Shown here in pieces: positions 11,731 to 22,572 of a stretch of DNA of 64,000 nt. The number at the start of each line of letters is the position of its first letter. The stretch's first letter is position 1. Source of the stretch: Burkholderia latens (GTDB lineage: Bacteria; Pseudomonadota; Gammaproteobacteria; Burkholderiales; Burkholderiaceae). The DNA lies in the NCBI RefSeq assembly GCF_001718795.1, contig NZ_CP013435.1, forward strand, positions 124,001 through 188,000, in the 5' to 3' direction. A program made the position numbers and the translations under genes. Under the pieces are notes generated by a model. That model had not been told where the DNA came from. It saw nothing but the letters and a program-made list of their open reading frames with translations, and did no database searches.

Positions 11731-12279
11731 CTAGGCCCGCCCGACCGGCACCGACACGATCGGCACATGCGATACGCCGTCGCGCGACAACCGGCTTTCA
11801 AATAACGTCAGCGCGTCGAAGCGCAGCGCGACCGGCCGTCCGGTCGCGCCGCCGTGTGCGGGTTGCCCTTCCGCGTCGCGCGGCAGCCGCGCGAGCGTGA
11901 CATGCGGCCTGAACGGCCGGCGGTCGGCCGGCACGCCCAACTCGCGCAGCAGCGCGCACAACTCGGCATTCAGCGCCGCACAGGCAGCATCGGGCGCAAG
12001 TTCCGCGACGATCAGCCGCGCGCGCGGCAGGCTCGGCCACCAGGCAATCCGCTCGACCCGCTGCAACGGCAGCGCATGCGCGGCCGCAAGCGCCGGCAGG
12101 CGCGCGGCCAGCGCGTCGCAACGCGCGCGTTCGATCGCGCCGATGAACGAGAGTGTCACGTGCAGTTGCGCGGGCAGCGTCCGCCGCGCGCCACGGGTGA
12201 CCGGCAACGCATGCAGCGCGTCGCGCGATGCCGTATCGGGCATCAGCGCGACGAATGCACGCAGCCGGTCGGCGTTCAT
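11731..12279 (-). CDS. thpR: RNA 2',3'-cyclic phosphodiesterase (2'-5' RNA ligase family)
   Basis: This 182-residue member of the 2H phosphoesterase family carries the two catalytic HxT motifs, in LHVTLSFIG and FRPHVTLARL. ThpR/LigT hydrolyses 2',3'-cyclic phosphates on RNA and can ligate 2'-5' linked tRNA halves; its physiological role is unclear. The ATG (12277-12279) overlaps the stop codon of the upstream symporter gene as ATGA. The start gives MNADRLRAFVALMPD, the expected family N-terminus. Confidence 0.92.
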   Translation of the reverse strand: MNADRLRAFVALMPDTASRDALHALPVTRGARRTLPAQLHVTLSFIGAIERARCDALAARLPALAAAHALPLQRVERIAWWPSLPRARLIVAELAPDAACAALNAELCALLRELGVPADRRPFRPHVTLARLPRDAEGQPAHGGATGRPVALRFDALTLFESRLSRDGVSHVPIVSVPVGRA

Positions 12280-13766
12280 GACTCGCGCACCGCGGCACGC
12301 GGCGCGCTCGCTGCATCGGCCGAAACCGGGCGCGGCGGCAGCGGGCCATGCTCGCCCCACACGTCGGCCGGCAGCACGTTCGCAAGCGCCGGGATCGTGT
12401 TGCGCGTGAACACCGGATCGGCGATGCCGGCCGCGCGCTGGCGACAATAATCGGCCCACGCGGCGTGCGCGTATTTGCCGAGCGCGAGGATCGCGATCAG
12501 GTTGATGATCGCCATCAGTCCCATGCTCGTATCGGCCATCGCCCACACGAGCGGCAGTTGCCCGACGCTGCCGAACATCACCATCCCGAGCACCGCGATC
12601 CGGAACAGCGGCAGCACGCCGCGCCGCTTCGTAATGAATTCGACGTTGCCCTCCGCGTACGCGTAATTGCCGATTACCGACGAGTACGCAAAGAAGAAGA
12701 TCGCGAACGCCATATAGATGCCGCCCCAGTCGCCGACGTGGCTCGCGATCGAGCGCTGTGTGAGCGCCGCGCCTTCCATCCCGGTGCCCAACTCGTACTG
12801 GCCGGACAGCAGGATCACGAACGCGGTCGCGCTGCAGATGACGATCGTGTCGACGAACACGCCGAGCATCTGGATCAGCCCCTGCACGACCGGATGCCGC
12901 GTGCTGGCGGTCGCCGCCGCATTCGGCGCGCTACCCATGCCCGCCTCGTTCGAAAACAGCCCGCGCTTGACGCCCATTGCGACCGCCTGACTGACCGCAT
13001 AGCCCGTCAACCCGCCTGCGGCCTGCTCGAGACCGAAGGCGCTTTTCACGATCAGCGCGATCACGGCCGGCACCAGCGCGATATGCGTCGCGACCGCGTA
13101 GACTGCGAGCGCGAGATAACCGATCGCCATCACCGGCACGATCACCTGCGCGACGGCCGCGATGCGGCGAATGCCGCCGAAGATGATCGGCGCGCTCAGC
13201 AGCACGAGGCCGAGGCCGACCGTCTCGCGGCTCCAGCCGAACGACGTGTGGAATGCATCGGCGATCGCGTTGGCCTGCACCGCGTTGAACACGAAGCCGA
13301 ACGCGAGGATCAGAGACAGCGAGAACAGCACGCCGAAGCCGCGCGAGCGCAGGCCAGTCTGGATGTAGTACGCGGGGCCGCCGCGATAGCTGCCGTCCGG
13401 ATGCGACACCTTGAAGATCTGCGCCAGCGTCGCCTCGACGAACGCGGACGACATCCCGACGAGCGCCGTCATCCACATCCAGAAAATCGCGCCCGGACCG
13501 CCGACCGTCAGCGCGACCGCGACGCCCGCGATGTTGCCGGTGCCGACCCGGCTCGCGAGCCCGGTCGCGAATGCCTGGAACGACGAGATCCTGCCCGGTT
13601 CGCCCTTGCTGCCGACCAGCTTCATGCTGAGGAACAGCGCCTTCAGCTGGATCATCCGAAACCGCAGCGTGAACCACGCGCCGGCGCCGAGCAGCAGCGC
13701 AATCAGCACGTAGTTCCACAACACGCCGTTGACGGCGTCGATCAGCCCATGCACGAGTGCTTCCAT
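12276..13766 (-). CDS. Alanine/glycine:cation symporter (AGCS family)
   Basis: This 496-residue inner-membrane symporter of the AGCS family (AlsT/DagA type) couples uptake of alanine or glycine to sodium. About 10-11 hydrophobic segments are evident, with family signatures GTGNIAGVAVALTVGGPGAIFWMW, quoted here in parts as GTGNIAGVAVA and GGPGAIFWMW, plus GLFSNEAGMGSAPNAAA. The chosen ATG at 13766 (MEALVHGL) has AAGGA six bases upstream; a TTG five codons earlier is also in frame. It is the first gene of a two-gene unit with thpR. Confidence 0.93.
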   Translation of the reverse strand: MEALVHGLIDAVNGVLWNYVLIALLLGAGAWFTLRFRMIQLKALFLSMKLVGSKGEPGRISSFQAFATGLASRVGTGNIAGVAVALTVGGPGAIFWMWMTALVGMSSAFVEATLAQIFKVSHPDGSYRGGPAYYIQTGLRSRGFGVLFSLSLILAFGFVFNAVQANAIADAFHTSFGWSRETVGLGLVLLSAPIIFGGIRRIAAVAQVIVPVMAIGYLALAVYAVATHIALVPAVIALIVKSAFGLEQAAGGLTGYAVSQAVAMGVKRGLFSNEAGMGSAPNAAATASTRHPVVQGLIQMLGVFVDTIVICSATAFVILLSGQYELGTGMEGAALTQRSIASHVGDWGGIYMAFAIFFFAYSSVIGNYAYAEGNVEFITKRRGVLPLFRIAVLGMVMFGSVGQLPLVWAMADTSMGLMAIINLIAILALGKYAHAAWADYCRQRAAGIADPVFTRNTIPALANVLPADVWGEHGPLPPRPVSADAASAPRAAVRES

Positions 13767-14500
13767 CCAGTGTCCTTGCAAATAGGTCGATTACGTATAG
13801 CGGTCGCGCGAACACGGTCCGCGGGGCGACATGATAGGACAGTTTGCAAGGTTTATTACAAAACGAAAGATTTGAGCTAGCGGCAAACGGATAGCGGATG
13901 CCATCAGGTTAGGTGATGCTTCGGGAAAATCCGACGAGCCGGTGGGGTCGAGCAAACGAGTGGACGGCGACACGATGATCGTCAGATCCGATGCCACGCG
14001 TCGACGCGTGTGGCCTGCAACGCGTCGAACGAGATGCGACCGGCCGGAATCGACCACCAGATGCGTGCATGCCAGCCTGGCCGAGTGATCCGCTAAGGCG
14101 ACGACATTATTGCGAATGAATCCGCCTTCTTTGACATTCCGAAACGTTGTTGATGGCGACATTGGCCAGCTAGTGCTGTCTCCATGTTTGCCGCCTTGCG
14201 TGGCCCATTCGTTCTGCACGTACCGCGACCAATTGCAAGCCGCTTCACAGTGATCAGGCTTCCACGCCTTTCTGGAAAAGGCTCTCCGGCCAGCGAAGCA
14301 ATCCCCCCAGATGGGGTATGTCCGCCGCATTTTTCTCGAAAAATTCGAGAAAAATGCGGGTTGCAGGGTGCGTCGAAAACTGCTTCATGTTCACCACTAG
14401 AACGACGGATACACGCCGCGCGGAATCCGGTAAAGAATGATGGCATATGATTCGCATTACGAATTACTCTGGAAACTCAAGAATAGGACGGAGGCTTGAA
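13767..14500 (-). other. Gene-poor 734-bp stretch at the left edge of the bacteriocin island
   Basis: No open frame here looks like a recognisable protein on either strand. Base composition drops from the GC-rich pattern of the flanks towards AT-richer sequence as the bacteriocin gene is approached. Two symmetric sites stand out: a 16-bp palindrome CACGCGTCGACGCGTG at 13995-14010 and a perfect 16-bp inverted repeat at 14325-14359. The bacteriocin promoter should lie in the last part, but no convincing -35/-10 pair or LexA box was found. Confidence 0.6.
14325..14359. repeat. Perfect 16-bp inverted repeat with 3-base centre
   Basis: CCGCATTTTTCTCGAA (14325-14340) is followed by AAA and then its exact reverse complement (14344-14359). 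It lies about 140 bp upstream of the bacteriocin start codon. It could be a regulator site, a foldback element or a remnant of a mobile element; there is no adjacent T-tract, so it is not a typical terminator. Confidence 0.85.
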
Positions 14501-15627
14501 ATGAAAGATCGCGATTCGTCAACCATCGAAAGTATTGAGCTCATTGCACAAACGCGCCGCCATCGAGAAAGACGGCGGCTCCTGGCAAGCTCAACGGCCA
14601 TCCCTCTCTATGCGCTACTGAAGCACTCGATATGTTCCGCACAATCCGGCACGTTGCCGCCGATTTCAGTCACCGCTCCACGCCTACCGAGGCTCGATGG
14701 CTTCTCCGGTAAAGTTGGGGGTGGAGGGTCAATGTCCGAGGCGGCGCTCGGCTATCCGAAACTTTGTGCTTTGGCAGATATTGCTCCGCCACGGAAATTT
14801 TCAATAATGCAGATTATGGTGACATGATTGCCACGACAGAGGATTTTTTCAAATTCCTTTTTGAGCATCGCAACGAAATGTTCTGGCGAAATCAATTGAC
14901 TTTGGTAGGCGAATTTACTGGATGGCTGGCGAGAGGCGGCTACAGGAATTTCCCTGGCGCAAATTCATACAACCTCAATGTCGCCCTGGGTCGACATGCC
15001 GACGTATCGACCCTATTCGGCATCTACGCGAATCAGCTCAATGGCATCCGCCCAATTTCAGAGTTTCAGTTTTACGGCAGCCCTTTCATGTTCATTGGGG
15101 CCGTCTATTATTGGATCTTCGGAAATGGGGAGCGAAAATCGATCAACCTCGAATCCATGAATCTGAGAATGAGCATTTCGGATTTCGAATTAATCCGGGC
15201 CAGCGTAGATAATCCCGGATACGGTCCGGGTACTTATCCGATCGACGGGCCGTTCAGCACTAACGTCTTCAGCCACGGCGCACAAGACTTCTGGTCCGCG
15301 ACCACTGTGGGCCGCGTGTCGGGTCACGTTCGAGGAACATTGACGATGCAGGAAGACAACACCTACCGCTTCGTTGGCTCCTATACATTGAATCCGGACA
15401 GATTCGATGCTGACCGCTCCAATCGACCGTTCCCGCAAGAATGGATGACTACCATTCTGCGAGAAATCGGCTCAATACTTGGCCACACCGACTATCAAAT
15501 CTACTTCGATGGCGAAAAGGAAATTTCGTTCTCTGGCCAAAGGCCCGTGCGGAACGCCGAAACGCGTCCACCCCAAGCAGTTCACCGGCCATCGTTCGGC
15601 GGACTCATGCGCCCGAGGCTCCGGTAA
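14501..15627 (+). pseudogene. Colicin-M-like bacteriocin (lipid II phosphodiesterase), apparently frameshifted
   Basis: The gene is read in two frames. Frame one (14501-14827, 108 codons) starts with ATG behind a strong GGACGGAGG and encodes a TonB-box-like, Pro-rich segment TLPPISVTAPRLPRL and a GKVGGGGS linker, as expected of an M-type bacteriocin import region. The rest (open from 14713 to 15627) carries the colicin M toxin domain: WIFGNGERKSINLESMNLRM, GTYPIDGPF, GHVRGTLTM, HTDYQIYFDGEKEIS and FSGQRP match colicin M block by block from memory. Joining needs a one-base shift; loss of one T in the run at 14798-14801 would do it. The catalytic stretch reads DRFDADRSNR (15397-15426), where colicin M has DKYDFNASTHR, so the conserved histidine appears missing. 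The toxin is probably inactive, unless the shift is a sequencing error or is programmed. A candidate immunity gene follows 63 bp downstream. Composition is AT-richer than the flanks, suggesting transfer. Confidence 0.78.
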
Positions 15628-15690
15628 ATGTAACGACAGGGTTTTCATCCGTCATCGCAACCTCATGTCCGGAGAGCTACCGAAACGATC

Positions 15691-16065
15691 ATGACCGCAA
15701 CAGTCACTCGCTGTATCGTTCGCCTCGCGCTTGTTCTTGTCGCGACAGCCTTCGCTCTGGTGTTGTTGTTTCTTATCATCGTTGGAATTGCCAGATACGA
15801 GCGGGACGAAGGCAGTTGTCCTGATGCGCCGGCCGAAGAGCTGGAGGCCAAAATTCTCGCATTCGCCAAAGAACGAGGCGTAGAGATGAACGAAGTCGAA
15901 TTCATCGGCAAGCCCCGCTACTATGCCGACAAGCTCGGCTGGTGGGCATTCGATCTAAAGTCGCGCGACGGAAACTACGCGGCAACGATCGATTGCGACC
16001 GCCGCATCACGGGTTTCGGGAAAATCCAGAAGCTTCCGCTCGAATCGGCGAAACCCGCACAATGA
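15691..16065 (+). CDS. Candidate immunity protein for the colicin-M-like bacteriocin (Cmi-like)
   Basis: This is a 124-residue protein with one N-terminal membrane helix (about residues 8-34) and a periplasmic domain of about 85 residues. The layout parallels the colicin M immunity protein Cmi: membrane anchor, a cysteine soon after it (DEGSC), a central helical part, a WAFDLKSRDGNYAATIDC strand pair, and a second cysteine near the end that could form the Cmi-like disulfide. Sequence identity to Cmi is low and the match is by architecture. Immunity genes lie next to their toxin genes, and this one is 63 bp downstream on the same strand. No good Shine-Dalgarno lies close to the ATG (GGAG is 16-17 bases away). 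It could instead be an unrelated small anchored protein. Confidence 0.6.
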   Translation: MTATVTRCIVRLALVLVATAFALVLLFLIIVGIARYERDEGSCPDAPAEELEAKILAFAKERGVEMNEVEFIGKPRYYADKLGWWAFDLKSRDGNYAATIDCDRRITGFGKIQKLPLESAKPAQ

Positions 16066-16128
16066 CGTCGCTAAACGGCACTCCCTGGACGTGTGCCGCC
16101 AGCAGAGGCCCTCGCCGCCGGCTCCCGC

Positions 16129-16157
16129 AAAAAAACGGGCGCCCTTTCGGACGCCCG
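16129..16157 (-). terminator. Intrinsic terminator of gltBD
   Basis: On the minus strand CGGGCGTCC and GGGCGCCCG form a stem with one mismatch and a GAAA-type loop, followed by seven T residues. It lies about 35 bp after the gltD stop codon. Confidence 0.85.
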
Positions 16158-16188
16158 GCCTTCATCGAGACGAAACCGCCCGCAATAC

Positions 16189-17655
16189 TCAGCGCGGCAG
16201 CTCCGAATGCCCCATCAGGTACGCATCGACCGAGCGCGCGCACTGGCGGCCTTCGCGGATCGCCCACACGACGAGCGACTGGCCGCGACGCATGTCGCCT
16301 GCCGCGAACACCTTGTCGACCGACGTGTAGTACGAACGATCGCCTTCGGTCGCGGCGCGCGCATTGCCTCGCGCATCCTTCGCGACGCCGAACGCGTCGA
16401 GCACCGGCGCGGCCGGCTGCGTGAAGCCCATCGCGAGCAGCACGAGGTCGGCCTTCATCTCGAACTCCGAGCCCGGCACTTCCTGCATCTTGCCGTCCTT
16501 CCACTCGACGCGCACCGCGATCAGCTTCTCGACCTTGCCGTTCTTGCCTTCGAGGCGCTTCGTCGCGACTGCCCAGTCGCGCTCGCAGCCTTCCTCGTGC
16601 GACGACGACGTGCGCAGCTTGATCGGCCAGTACGGCCATACGAGCGGCTTGTTCTCCTCTTCCGGCGGCTGCGGCAGCAGTTCGAACTGCGTGACCTGCT
16701 TCGCGCCGTGACGATTCGACGTGCCGACGCAGTCCGAACCCGTGTCACCACCGCCGATCACGATCACGTGCTTGCCCTTCGCAAGCAGCTGGTCGGTGAG
16801 CTTGTCGCCTGCGTTCACGCGGTTTTGCTGCGGCAGGAAGTCCATCGCGAAATGGACGCCGGCGAGCTCGCGACCCGGCACCGGCAGGTCGCGCGGCGTT
16901 TCCGAACCGCCTGCGATCACGACCGCGTCGAATTCTTCCTTCAGCGTCTCCGGCGAAATGGTTTCTTTCGCGAGGTTGCCGATCGATTCGGGCAGCGGAT
17001 CCTTGCCGATGAACACGCTCGTGCGGAACGTCACGCCTTCCGCTTCCATCTGGCGCATGCGGCGATCGATCAGCCACTTCTCGAGCTTGAAGTCGGGGAT
17101 CCCGTAACGCAGCAGACCGCCGATGCGATCGTTCTTCTCGAACACCGTCACGTCGTGGCCGGCGCGCGCGAGCTGCTGCGCGGCGGCGAGGCCGGCGGGG
17201 CCCGAGCCGACGATCGCGACTTTCTTGCCCGTCTTGTGTGCGGCCGGCTGCGGCTTCACCCAGCCTTCTGCCCACGCCTTGTCGATGATCGCGTGCTCGA
17301 TCGACTTGATGCCGACCGGATCGTTGTTGATTCCGAGCGTGCACGCTGCCTCGCACGGCGCCGGGCAAATGCGGCCCGTGAACTCCGGGAAGTTGTTGGT
17401 CGAGTGCAGGACTTCGATCGCCTGCTGCCAGTCCTGGCGATAAACGAGATCGTTGAAGTCCGGGATGATGTTGTTGACCGGGCAGCCGTTGTTGCAAAAC
17501 GGGATGCCGCAATCCATGCAGCGCGCGCCCTGAACCTTCGCGTCCGCGTCGGTCAGCGCCGCGACGAATTCCTTGTAGTGCTTCACGCGCGTGAGCGGTG
17601 CTTCGTACGCCTCGTGGCGGCGTTCGAACTCCAGAAAACCGGTTGCCTTGCCCAT
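16189..17655 (-). CDS. gltD: Glutamate synthase (NADPH) small subunit
   Basis: GltD (488 residues) passes electrons from NADPH through FAD and two 4Fe-4S clusters to GltB for glutamate synthesis. The N-terminal cysteine clusters [15 protein letters not shown] and [14 protein letters not shown] are intact, followed by the FAD motif [14 protein letters not shown] and the NADPH motif [13 protein letters not shown]. The start is the ATG giving [13 protein letters not shown]; the frame is open 16 codons further upstream. It lies 84 bp downstream of gltB in one operon and ends before a strong terminator. Confidence 0.97.
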
Positions 17656-17739
17656 AAGGTGCTCTTCTGTTCGGTGTATCGGGTGGGGAGCCGCGCGCGG
17701 CAATCATGCGCGCGCGGCAGTCGCTATGTCGTTCGTCGT

Positions 17740-22443
<4,704 letters not shown>

Positions 22444-22572
22444 GGGGACACCGTCGTAAAGGGGCCTCGAGGGCCGTTGAACCATTTTTTGTTGCCGTCA
22501 CTCCCGCTCCCGACGGGAGACGGCACGGCCGACAGTGGTTGGGCGAACTTCGCCGGGGCCACCGGAATTCGG

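What the first reader, a model, noticed from the sequence alone, without database searches (positions are those of the whole stretch)
13800..16070. AT-richer island carrying a colicin-M-like bacteriocin and a candidate immunity gene
Seen: a 2.3-kb stretch with lower GC than both flanks, bounded by housekeeping genes (AGCS symporter and gltBD). It encodes a toxin domain matching colicin M in block order (WIFGNGERKSIN, GTYPIDGPF, GHVRGTLTM, DYQIYFDGEKEIS, SGQRP) and a small anchored protein right behind it. Known: colicin M-type toxins cleave lipid II in the periplasm, and their producers carry an adjacent periplasmic immunity protein; M-type bacteriocins have, as I recall, been described in Burkholderia, so the family itself is not new. 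Inference: this is a horizontally acquired competition module.
Basis: partly seen in the sequence, partly recalled or inferred. Interest (0 to 1): 0.72.

Follow-up and report, generated by a model that had tools for sequence, protein, structure and literature searches.

The report
Broken burkhocin M gene, intact immunity
A Burkholderia chromosome carries, at an already published spot, the immunity gene of a known bacteriocin next to a copy of the bacteriocin gene whose reading frame is broken, so the strain probably resists this weapon without making it.

Summary
A 2.2-kb AT-richer insert (about 13,935-16,128) between an AGCS symporter gene and gltD encodes a colicin-M domain (PF14859, E 1.3e-14) and, behind it, a 124-residue membrane-anchored protein. 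Both fit a published family: burkhocin M (ColM-beta) and its immunity protein BmiB. PMC4661593 (2015) already describes this site, the ~2.2-kb low-GC stretch and both genes. The 'joined translation' hides that the toxin gene is not one reading frame here: signal peptide and killing domain lie in different frames. At this site 7 of 9 other species' alleles are intact and 2 are split elsewhere; bmiB is open in 9 of these 10 alleles. Of 65 Burkholderia genomes, 54 show gltD next to the symporter gene: 9 with both genes, 12 with bmiB only, 33 with neither. Presence of burM and bmiB is patchy on the flank tree, and some cassettes are much closer or much more distant than their flanks, which points to exchange. 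Most likely a recently disarmed burkhocin cassette that still gives immunity; a sequencing error is not excluded. Known kind, low interest.

The parts
13935..16128 (.). Inserted cassette between AGCS symporter and gltD; borders known to about 10 bases
   Evidence: DNA similarity to other loci's spacers mostly stops at 16129 on the gltD side and at about 13,920-13,940 on the symporter side; low GC
14447..14827 (+). N-terminal piece of the burM gene (ATG at 14447 or 14501): twin-arginine-like signal peptide (by eye) and the LPPISVTAPRLP box published as TonB-like; goes out of frame after about codon 105 counted from 14447
   Evidence: ORF; aligns to the first part of intact relatives
14764..15627 (+). 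C-terminal piece of the burM gene in another frame: ColM-beta domain with motif DRFDADRSNR and a 27-residue tail as in published burkhocins
   Evidence: PF14859 E 1.3e-14; relatives up to 91% identical; D212, F214, D215, A216, D217 and R221 invariant in 24 rows; Foldseek to colicin-M-type structures
15691..16065 (+). bmiB, putative burkhocin immunity gene: 124 residues, helix 2-36 taken as membrane anchor, periplasmic domain with Cys43 and Cys102; open frame
   Evidence: same position and strand as published bmiB
12276..13781 (-). AGCS sodium:alanine symporter (flank)
   Evidence: PF01235 E 4.6e-154
16189..17703 (-). gltD, glutamate synthase small subunit (flank)
   Evidence: a match of 90-99% identity in 65 of 65 Burkholderia genomes
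17740..22485 (-). gltB, glutamate synthase large subunit (flank)
   Evidence: ORF; 2.5 kb of it are 90-97% identical across 65 genomes; name from recalled family knowledge and position

Best explanation
This is a burkhocin M2-type bacteriocin/immunity cassette (burM-bmiB, ColM-beta branch) at its known chromosomal site between gltD and an AGCS symporter gene. In intact relatives burM makes a secreted protein: an N-terminal signal peptide exports it, a short box probably engages the target's TonB import, and the C-terminal ColM domain attacks a peptidoglycan precursor, presumably lipid II (inferred from colicin M, not shown for burkhocins). BmiB, anchored in the inner membrane and facing the periplasm, protects the cell (shown in print for BurM2/BmiB of strain AMMD, inferred here). 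In this window the burM gene is split between two frames, so no single protein carries both export signal and killing domain, and the locus most likely gives immunity without killing. Cassettes seem to be exchanged at this fixed site, probably by recombination through the conserved flanks (inferred). The toxin gene is broken or missing more often than the immunity gene.
For: PF14859 match and structural relatives. Relatives named lipid II-degrading bacteriocin in Burkholderia; 10 of the 23 hits are 372-412 residues long. D, F, D and R of the motif and the C-terminal tail agree with published burkhocin features. BmiB rows 49-100% identical, Cys43 in 16 of 16 and Cys102 in 15 of 16. Published site, low-GC length, gene order and strand match. 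Frame split: an intact relative aligns to the window in two segments in two frames, and in one segment to 7 of 9 other loci. The break looks recent: the C-terminal piece has no stop over 287 codons and pN/pS 0.09 to L015, like the intact pair L015-L008 (0.09). bmiB keeps pN/pS 0.20-0.28 to its two nearest relatives. Exchange: burM+bmiB needs 9 changes on the symporter tree against 9.3 shuffled, bmiB only 10 against 10.2; sister flanks L054/L065 (symporter pS 0.096) carry burMs of different subgroups; L029/L040 have burM pS 0.08 against symporter pS 0.16. All 25 bmiB-profile hits, in 21 of 65 genomes, lie on gltD's contig within about 1.7 kb of it.
Against: The window's own assembly is not held, so the frame change could not be checked against other reads or strains and may be a sequencing error. 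Export, killing, immunity and lipid II cleavage were not tested. The tree uses one flanking gene and 15 of its 50 inner branches are weakly supported; the state 'neither gene' is somewhat clustered (13 changes against 16.8 shuffled, 22 of 500 shuffles as low), which fits loss or inheritance by descent in part. Higher pS in burM than in the symporter gene may partly reflect different codon constraint, not only history. The bmiB profile was built from close relatives and may miss distant bmiB genes elsewhere, such as those published beside a LysR regulator.
Confidence: 0.8

Rival explanations
1. The frame change is a sequencing or assembly error and burM is an ordinary intact gene, so the cassette is a working burkhocin producer locus.
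For: The C-terminal piece is fully open and shows the same constraint as intact genes (pN/pS 0.09); the window's own assembly is not held.
Against: Two of nine other loci at this site also have split burM genes, at other places, and 12 of 54 linked loci keep bmiB without burM, so loss of burM is common. Errors in those genomes cannot be excluded either.
Confidence: 0.2
2. The two frames are both expressed, by programmed frameshifting or re-initiation, and give a functional or two-part toxin.
For: The two ORFs overlap (14764-14827) and the second has start codons of its own.
Against: 7 of 9 relatives at the same site encode one uninterrupted protein, so no conserved recoding is expected. By eye there is no obvious slippery run at the overlap (not scored). 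A product started in the second frame would lack signal peptide and entry box.
Confidence: 0.05
3. The cassette is ancestral to a large part of the genus and its patchiness is all vertical inheritance with loss, not horizontal exchange.
For: Same orientation in all 9 burM+bmiB and 12 bmiB-only loci; loss of burM alone is plainly frequent; 'neither gene' is somewhat clustered on the tree.
Against: Cassette divergence does not track the flanks: L029/L040 cassettes are closer than their flanks, L054/L065 cassettes far more distant; GC differs from the flanks; burM+bmiB and bmiB-only are unclustered.
Confidence: 0.12

Closest known systems
Burkhocin M2 / BmiB of Burkholderia ambifaria AMMD (Ghequire and De Mot 2015, PMC4661593)
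   Same: Same chromosomal site, gene order and strand, ~2.2-kb low-GC stretch, same ColM motif variant (DKFDADSSNR there, DRFDADRSNR here), 124-residue BmiB with two conserved cysteines
   Different: The toxin gene of the window is split between two frames; AMMD's is intact and its product kills (published)
Colicin M / Cmi of Escherichia coli
   Same: ColM domain by sequence and predicted fold, with D, D and R of the DxYDx5HR motif; membrane-anchored periplasmic immunity protein (published topology)
   Different: Tyr replaced by Phe, His absent, C-terminal tail, cleavable signal peptide; the BmiB profile finds no Cmi in the PDB sequences
Burkholderia bmiB genes without burM (orphan immunity)
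   Same: Open bmiB at the same site without a working toxin (12 of 54 loci, one of them only a remnant); orphans described in PMC4661593
   Different: The window still holds nearly all the toxin DNA, so it would be an early stage

Membership tests
Burkhocin M (ColM-beta bacteriocins) | ColM domain PF14859 | tested here: met
   E 1.3e-14, 54.4 bits against a cut-off of 27
Burkhocin M (ColM-beta bacteriocins) | Equivalents of ColM D226 and R236 conserved, Y228 mainly F, His absent | tested here: met
   D212, F214, D215, R221 invariant in 24 aligned rows; N before R in the window; feature list
Burkhocin M (ColM-beta bacteriocins) | C-terminal extension of 26-36 residues after the ColM domain | tested here: met
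   Pfam match ends at residue 260 of 287
Burkhocin M (ColM-beta bacteriocins) | One protein with signal peptide, TonB-like box and ColM domain | tested here: not met
   Signal peptide and box in one frame, ColM domain in another; therefore filed as a disrupted burM allele, not as a working burkhocin
Burkhocin M (ColM-beta bacteriocins) | Kills Burkholderia; degrades lipid II | not testable with these tools
   Needs bench work
BmiB immunity proteins | About 126 residues, one hydrophobic helix near the N-terminus, next to burM | tested here: met
   124 residues, helix 2-36 in the model, 63 bases behind burM on the same strand
BmiB immunity proteins | Two conserved cysteines | tested here: met
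   Cys43 in 16 of 16, Cys102 in 15 of 16 rows
BmiB immunity proteins | Protects against the cognate burkhocin | not testable with these tools
   Shown for the AMMD protein in PMC4661593, not for this one
Cmi/YebF fold | YebF-type sequence signature or fold | tested here: inconclusive

The most novel reading that the evidence does not exclude
The gltD-symporter spacer is a fixed allelic bacteriocin/immunity locus of Burkholderia, in which producer, disarmed-but-immune (window, L065), immune-only and empty alleles are swapped between species through the conserved flanks. Toxin decay with retained immunity would be a recurrent, selected outcome, a resistant state written into one chromosomal site. 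BmiB's periplasmic part would be a PepSY/cystatin-like domain, a different answer to ColM from Cmi.
Probability: 0.4. Interest if true: 0.42.

Novelty: new member of a known kind. Interest (0 to 1): 0.2.

Why it matters
As a find it is modest: the family, its immunity partner and this chromosomal site have been in print since 2015. It adds a count over 65 Burkholderia genomes, one per species, in which immunity without toxin (12 of 54 linked loci) is about as common at this site as the pair (9 of 54), and in which split toxin genes are split at different places. That makes the locus a convenient natural series (producer, disarmed, immune only, empty) for asking whether immunity is kept by selection after the weapon is lost.

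Tried and rejected
Mobile carrier: no megablast match of 13782-16190 in 72,556 plasmid records. One distant match of the killing-domain piece in 50,697 phage records, to an annotated Cma of Pseudomonas phage DVM-2008 at 26.7% identity. No integrase or transposase match among the four insert ORFs given to Pfam; other, overlapping ORFs of the insert were not scanned. A transposase-type ORF pair lies in the spacer of one other locus (L014).

Palindrome 14325-14359 (16-base arms): a possible regulatory element, but no such repeat in the 9 other burM loci, none in 65 genomes at up to 2 mismatches, and not listed as terminator-like. Its one Rfam match is far below the gathering score (20.8 against 81 bits). 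The 13-base direct repeat 13920/16015 as an attachment or excision scar: of 26 other loci checked one (L068) has one copy, L065 has an 11-base part once, the rest none; taken as chance.

Cmi-like fold of BmiB: neither the 50 Foldseek rows shown nor the 50 rows of the second look list Cmi or YebF; this does not exclude the fold.

Rows left out: in 11 of 65 genomes no symporter match lies in the stretch fetched beside gltD (two of these stretches, L056 and L057, are short because the contig ends); they are not in the 54. Their stretches show no burM or bmiB match either. L009 and L028, with partial symporter matches, were left out of the tree (53 rows). One search printed the 30 least diverged bmiB pairs and all pairs with the window.

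Literature: searches. PMC4661593: parts 1 and 2 of 5, section 20 and passages. PMC5821083 and PMC8469651: passages. Other papers only as search listings. PMC8469651 says that all burkhocins carry DxYD(x5)HR; PMC4661593 and my alignment disagree (His absent). The three-term search for PepSY, immunity protein and bacteriocin found no paper, which is no proof that the idea is new.

Full report
What is there. The window holds an AGCS symporter gene (12276-13781, minus) and gltD (16189-17703, minus; Pfam matches), followed by a large ORF that I take as gltB (17740-22485, minus). Between symporter and gltD, GC falls from 0.61-0.73 to as low as 0.476. The insert begins near 13,935 and ends near 16,128. 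Just outside these points the DNA is shared with most other Burkholderia loci, whether or not they carry an insert; inside, similarity is found with few loci (9-10 over most of the two genes, about one over the 600 bases before burM).

The toxin gene. The frame at 14764-15627 encodes 287 residues with a Colicin_M domain (PF14859, E 1.3e-14). It is related to pectocin M1, colicin M and PaeM in the PDB by sequence. The predicted model of this piece (mean pLDDT 67.8) finds 14 PDB chains at E <= 0.001, all of the colicin M type. Of 23 protein hits the best are Burkholderia 'lipid II-degrading bacteriocins', up to 91% identical; 10 of the 23 are 372-412 residues long and the others shorter. In the window the first part of such a protein (RRR-type signal peptide, LPPISVTAPRLP box) lies in the frame of 14447-14827 and the rest in the other frame; the change falls between about 14,720 and 14,780. 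An intact relative's protein aligns to the window in two segments in two frames, but to 7 of 9 other loci at this site in one. The two exceptions, L054 (its contig has the length of Burkholderia sp. SRS-46, L001) and L065 (the length of B. stagnalis LMG 28156, L003), are split at other places. I kept all pieces apart and mended nothing. Intact copies exist in other species.

Already in print. Ghequire and De Mot 2015 (PMC4661593; [quoted passage not shown] BurM2 and BmiB of strain AMMD were shown there to kill and to protect. P0003 (372 residues, B. ambifaria, motif DKFDADSSNR) fits BurM2 by length and motif.

Survey. The 65 genomes held for the genus, one per species, are unnamed; that the genus is Burkholderia follows from contigs of the same length as named records (L001-L004). 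All 65 have gltD. In 54 a symporter match lies in the stretch fetched beside it: 9 spacers hold burM and bmiB, 12 hold bmiB without burM (one, L047, only a C-terminal remnant; three, L016, L028 and L053, with two bmiB matches in tandem), and 33 hold neither. Of those 33, 28 have gaps under 400 bases and 5 have gaps of 1.3-1.4 kb with other cargo. The burM and bmiB matches at this site all have one orientation. All 25 matches of the bmiB profile, in 21 of 65 genomes, are on gltD's contig within about 1.7 kb of it. ColM domains occur at 18 places in 17 of 65 genomes, 9 of the 18 at this site. The profile came from close relatives and may miss other Bmi types.

Exchange and decay. On a tree of the symporter gene (53 rows) burM+bmiB needs 9 changes against 9.3 shuffled and bmiB only 10 against 10.2, so neither is clustered. 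'Neither gene' is somewhat clustered (13 against 16.8; 22 of 500 shuffles as low), and all three states together need 17 against 19.0 (27 of 200). L054 and L065 have sister flanks (symporter pS 0.096) but burMs of different subgroups. L029 and L040 have symporter pS 0.16 but burM pS 0.08. The window's burM piece differs from L015's at pS 0.55 while the symporters differ at 0.25; unequal codon constraint could explain part of that. Together this argues for cassette swapping at one site; the means (recombination through conserved flanks) is inferred. The window's killing-domain piece still shows pN/pS 0.09 to L015, as the intact pair L015-L008 does, so the break is recent or an error. bmiB of the window keeps pN/pS 0.20 to L065 and 0.28 to L015; it is open in the window and in 8 of the 9 other alleles with burM, all but L054. 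Among the 30 least diverged bmiB pairs printed, pairs in which both loci lack burM show dN/dS 0.41-0.74 (8 pairs), pairs in which both have it 0.03-0.35 (12 pairs), and the other 10 are mixed. The pairs are not independent and the orphans are mostly one subgroup, so this is only a hint of relaxed or diversifying change in orphans.

Verdict. Most likely the strain resists BurM2-type burkhocins without making one. The main doubt is a sequencing error, because the window's own assembly is not held.

Noticed in passing
window 14325-14359: Perfect inverted repeat with 16-base arms and a 3-base loop upstream of burM; no such repeat in the 9 other burM loci and no match in 65 Burkholderia genomes at up to 2 mismatches. 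Function unknown.
   Followed up: yes
L016, L028, L053 (spacer beside gltD): Two bmiB matches in tandem without burM (in L053 the second covers only profile positions 37-115), perhaps immunity to two toxin types.
   Followed up: partly
L050:295-819, L051:326-829: Other cargo at the same site: a small protein with weak ricin-type lectin matches just under Pfam's cut-off.
   Followed up: partly
L025, L049, L067, and L011 and L055 beside bmiB: GC-rich cargo at the same site; the L025 ORF matches PhyH dioxygenase (PF05721, E 3.5e-08), and the others look alike by their first residues (by eye).
   Followed up: partly
L014:2110-3347: Transposase-type ORF pair (HTH_Tnp_1, rve) next to an intact burM-bmiB cassette.
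   Followed up: partly
bmiB genes of loci without burM: In the least diverged pairs, orphan bmiB genes show about twice the dN/dS of bmiB genes paired with burM; not corrected for relatedness.
   Followed up: partly
P0014 (Burkholderia ubonensis, 246 residues): A burM relative that lacks a large internal stretch of the ColM domain, apparently another decayed allele.
   Followed up: no
window 12276-13781: The window's symporter gene has a long end branch (0.072 against a median of 0.024) while its gltB is 96-97% identical to many species; possibly recombinant.
   Followed up: no
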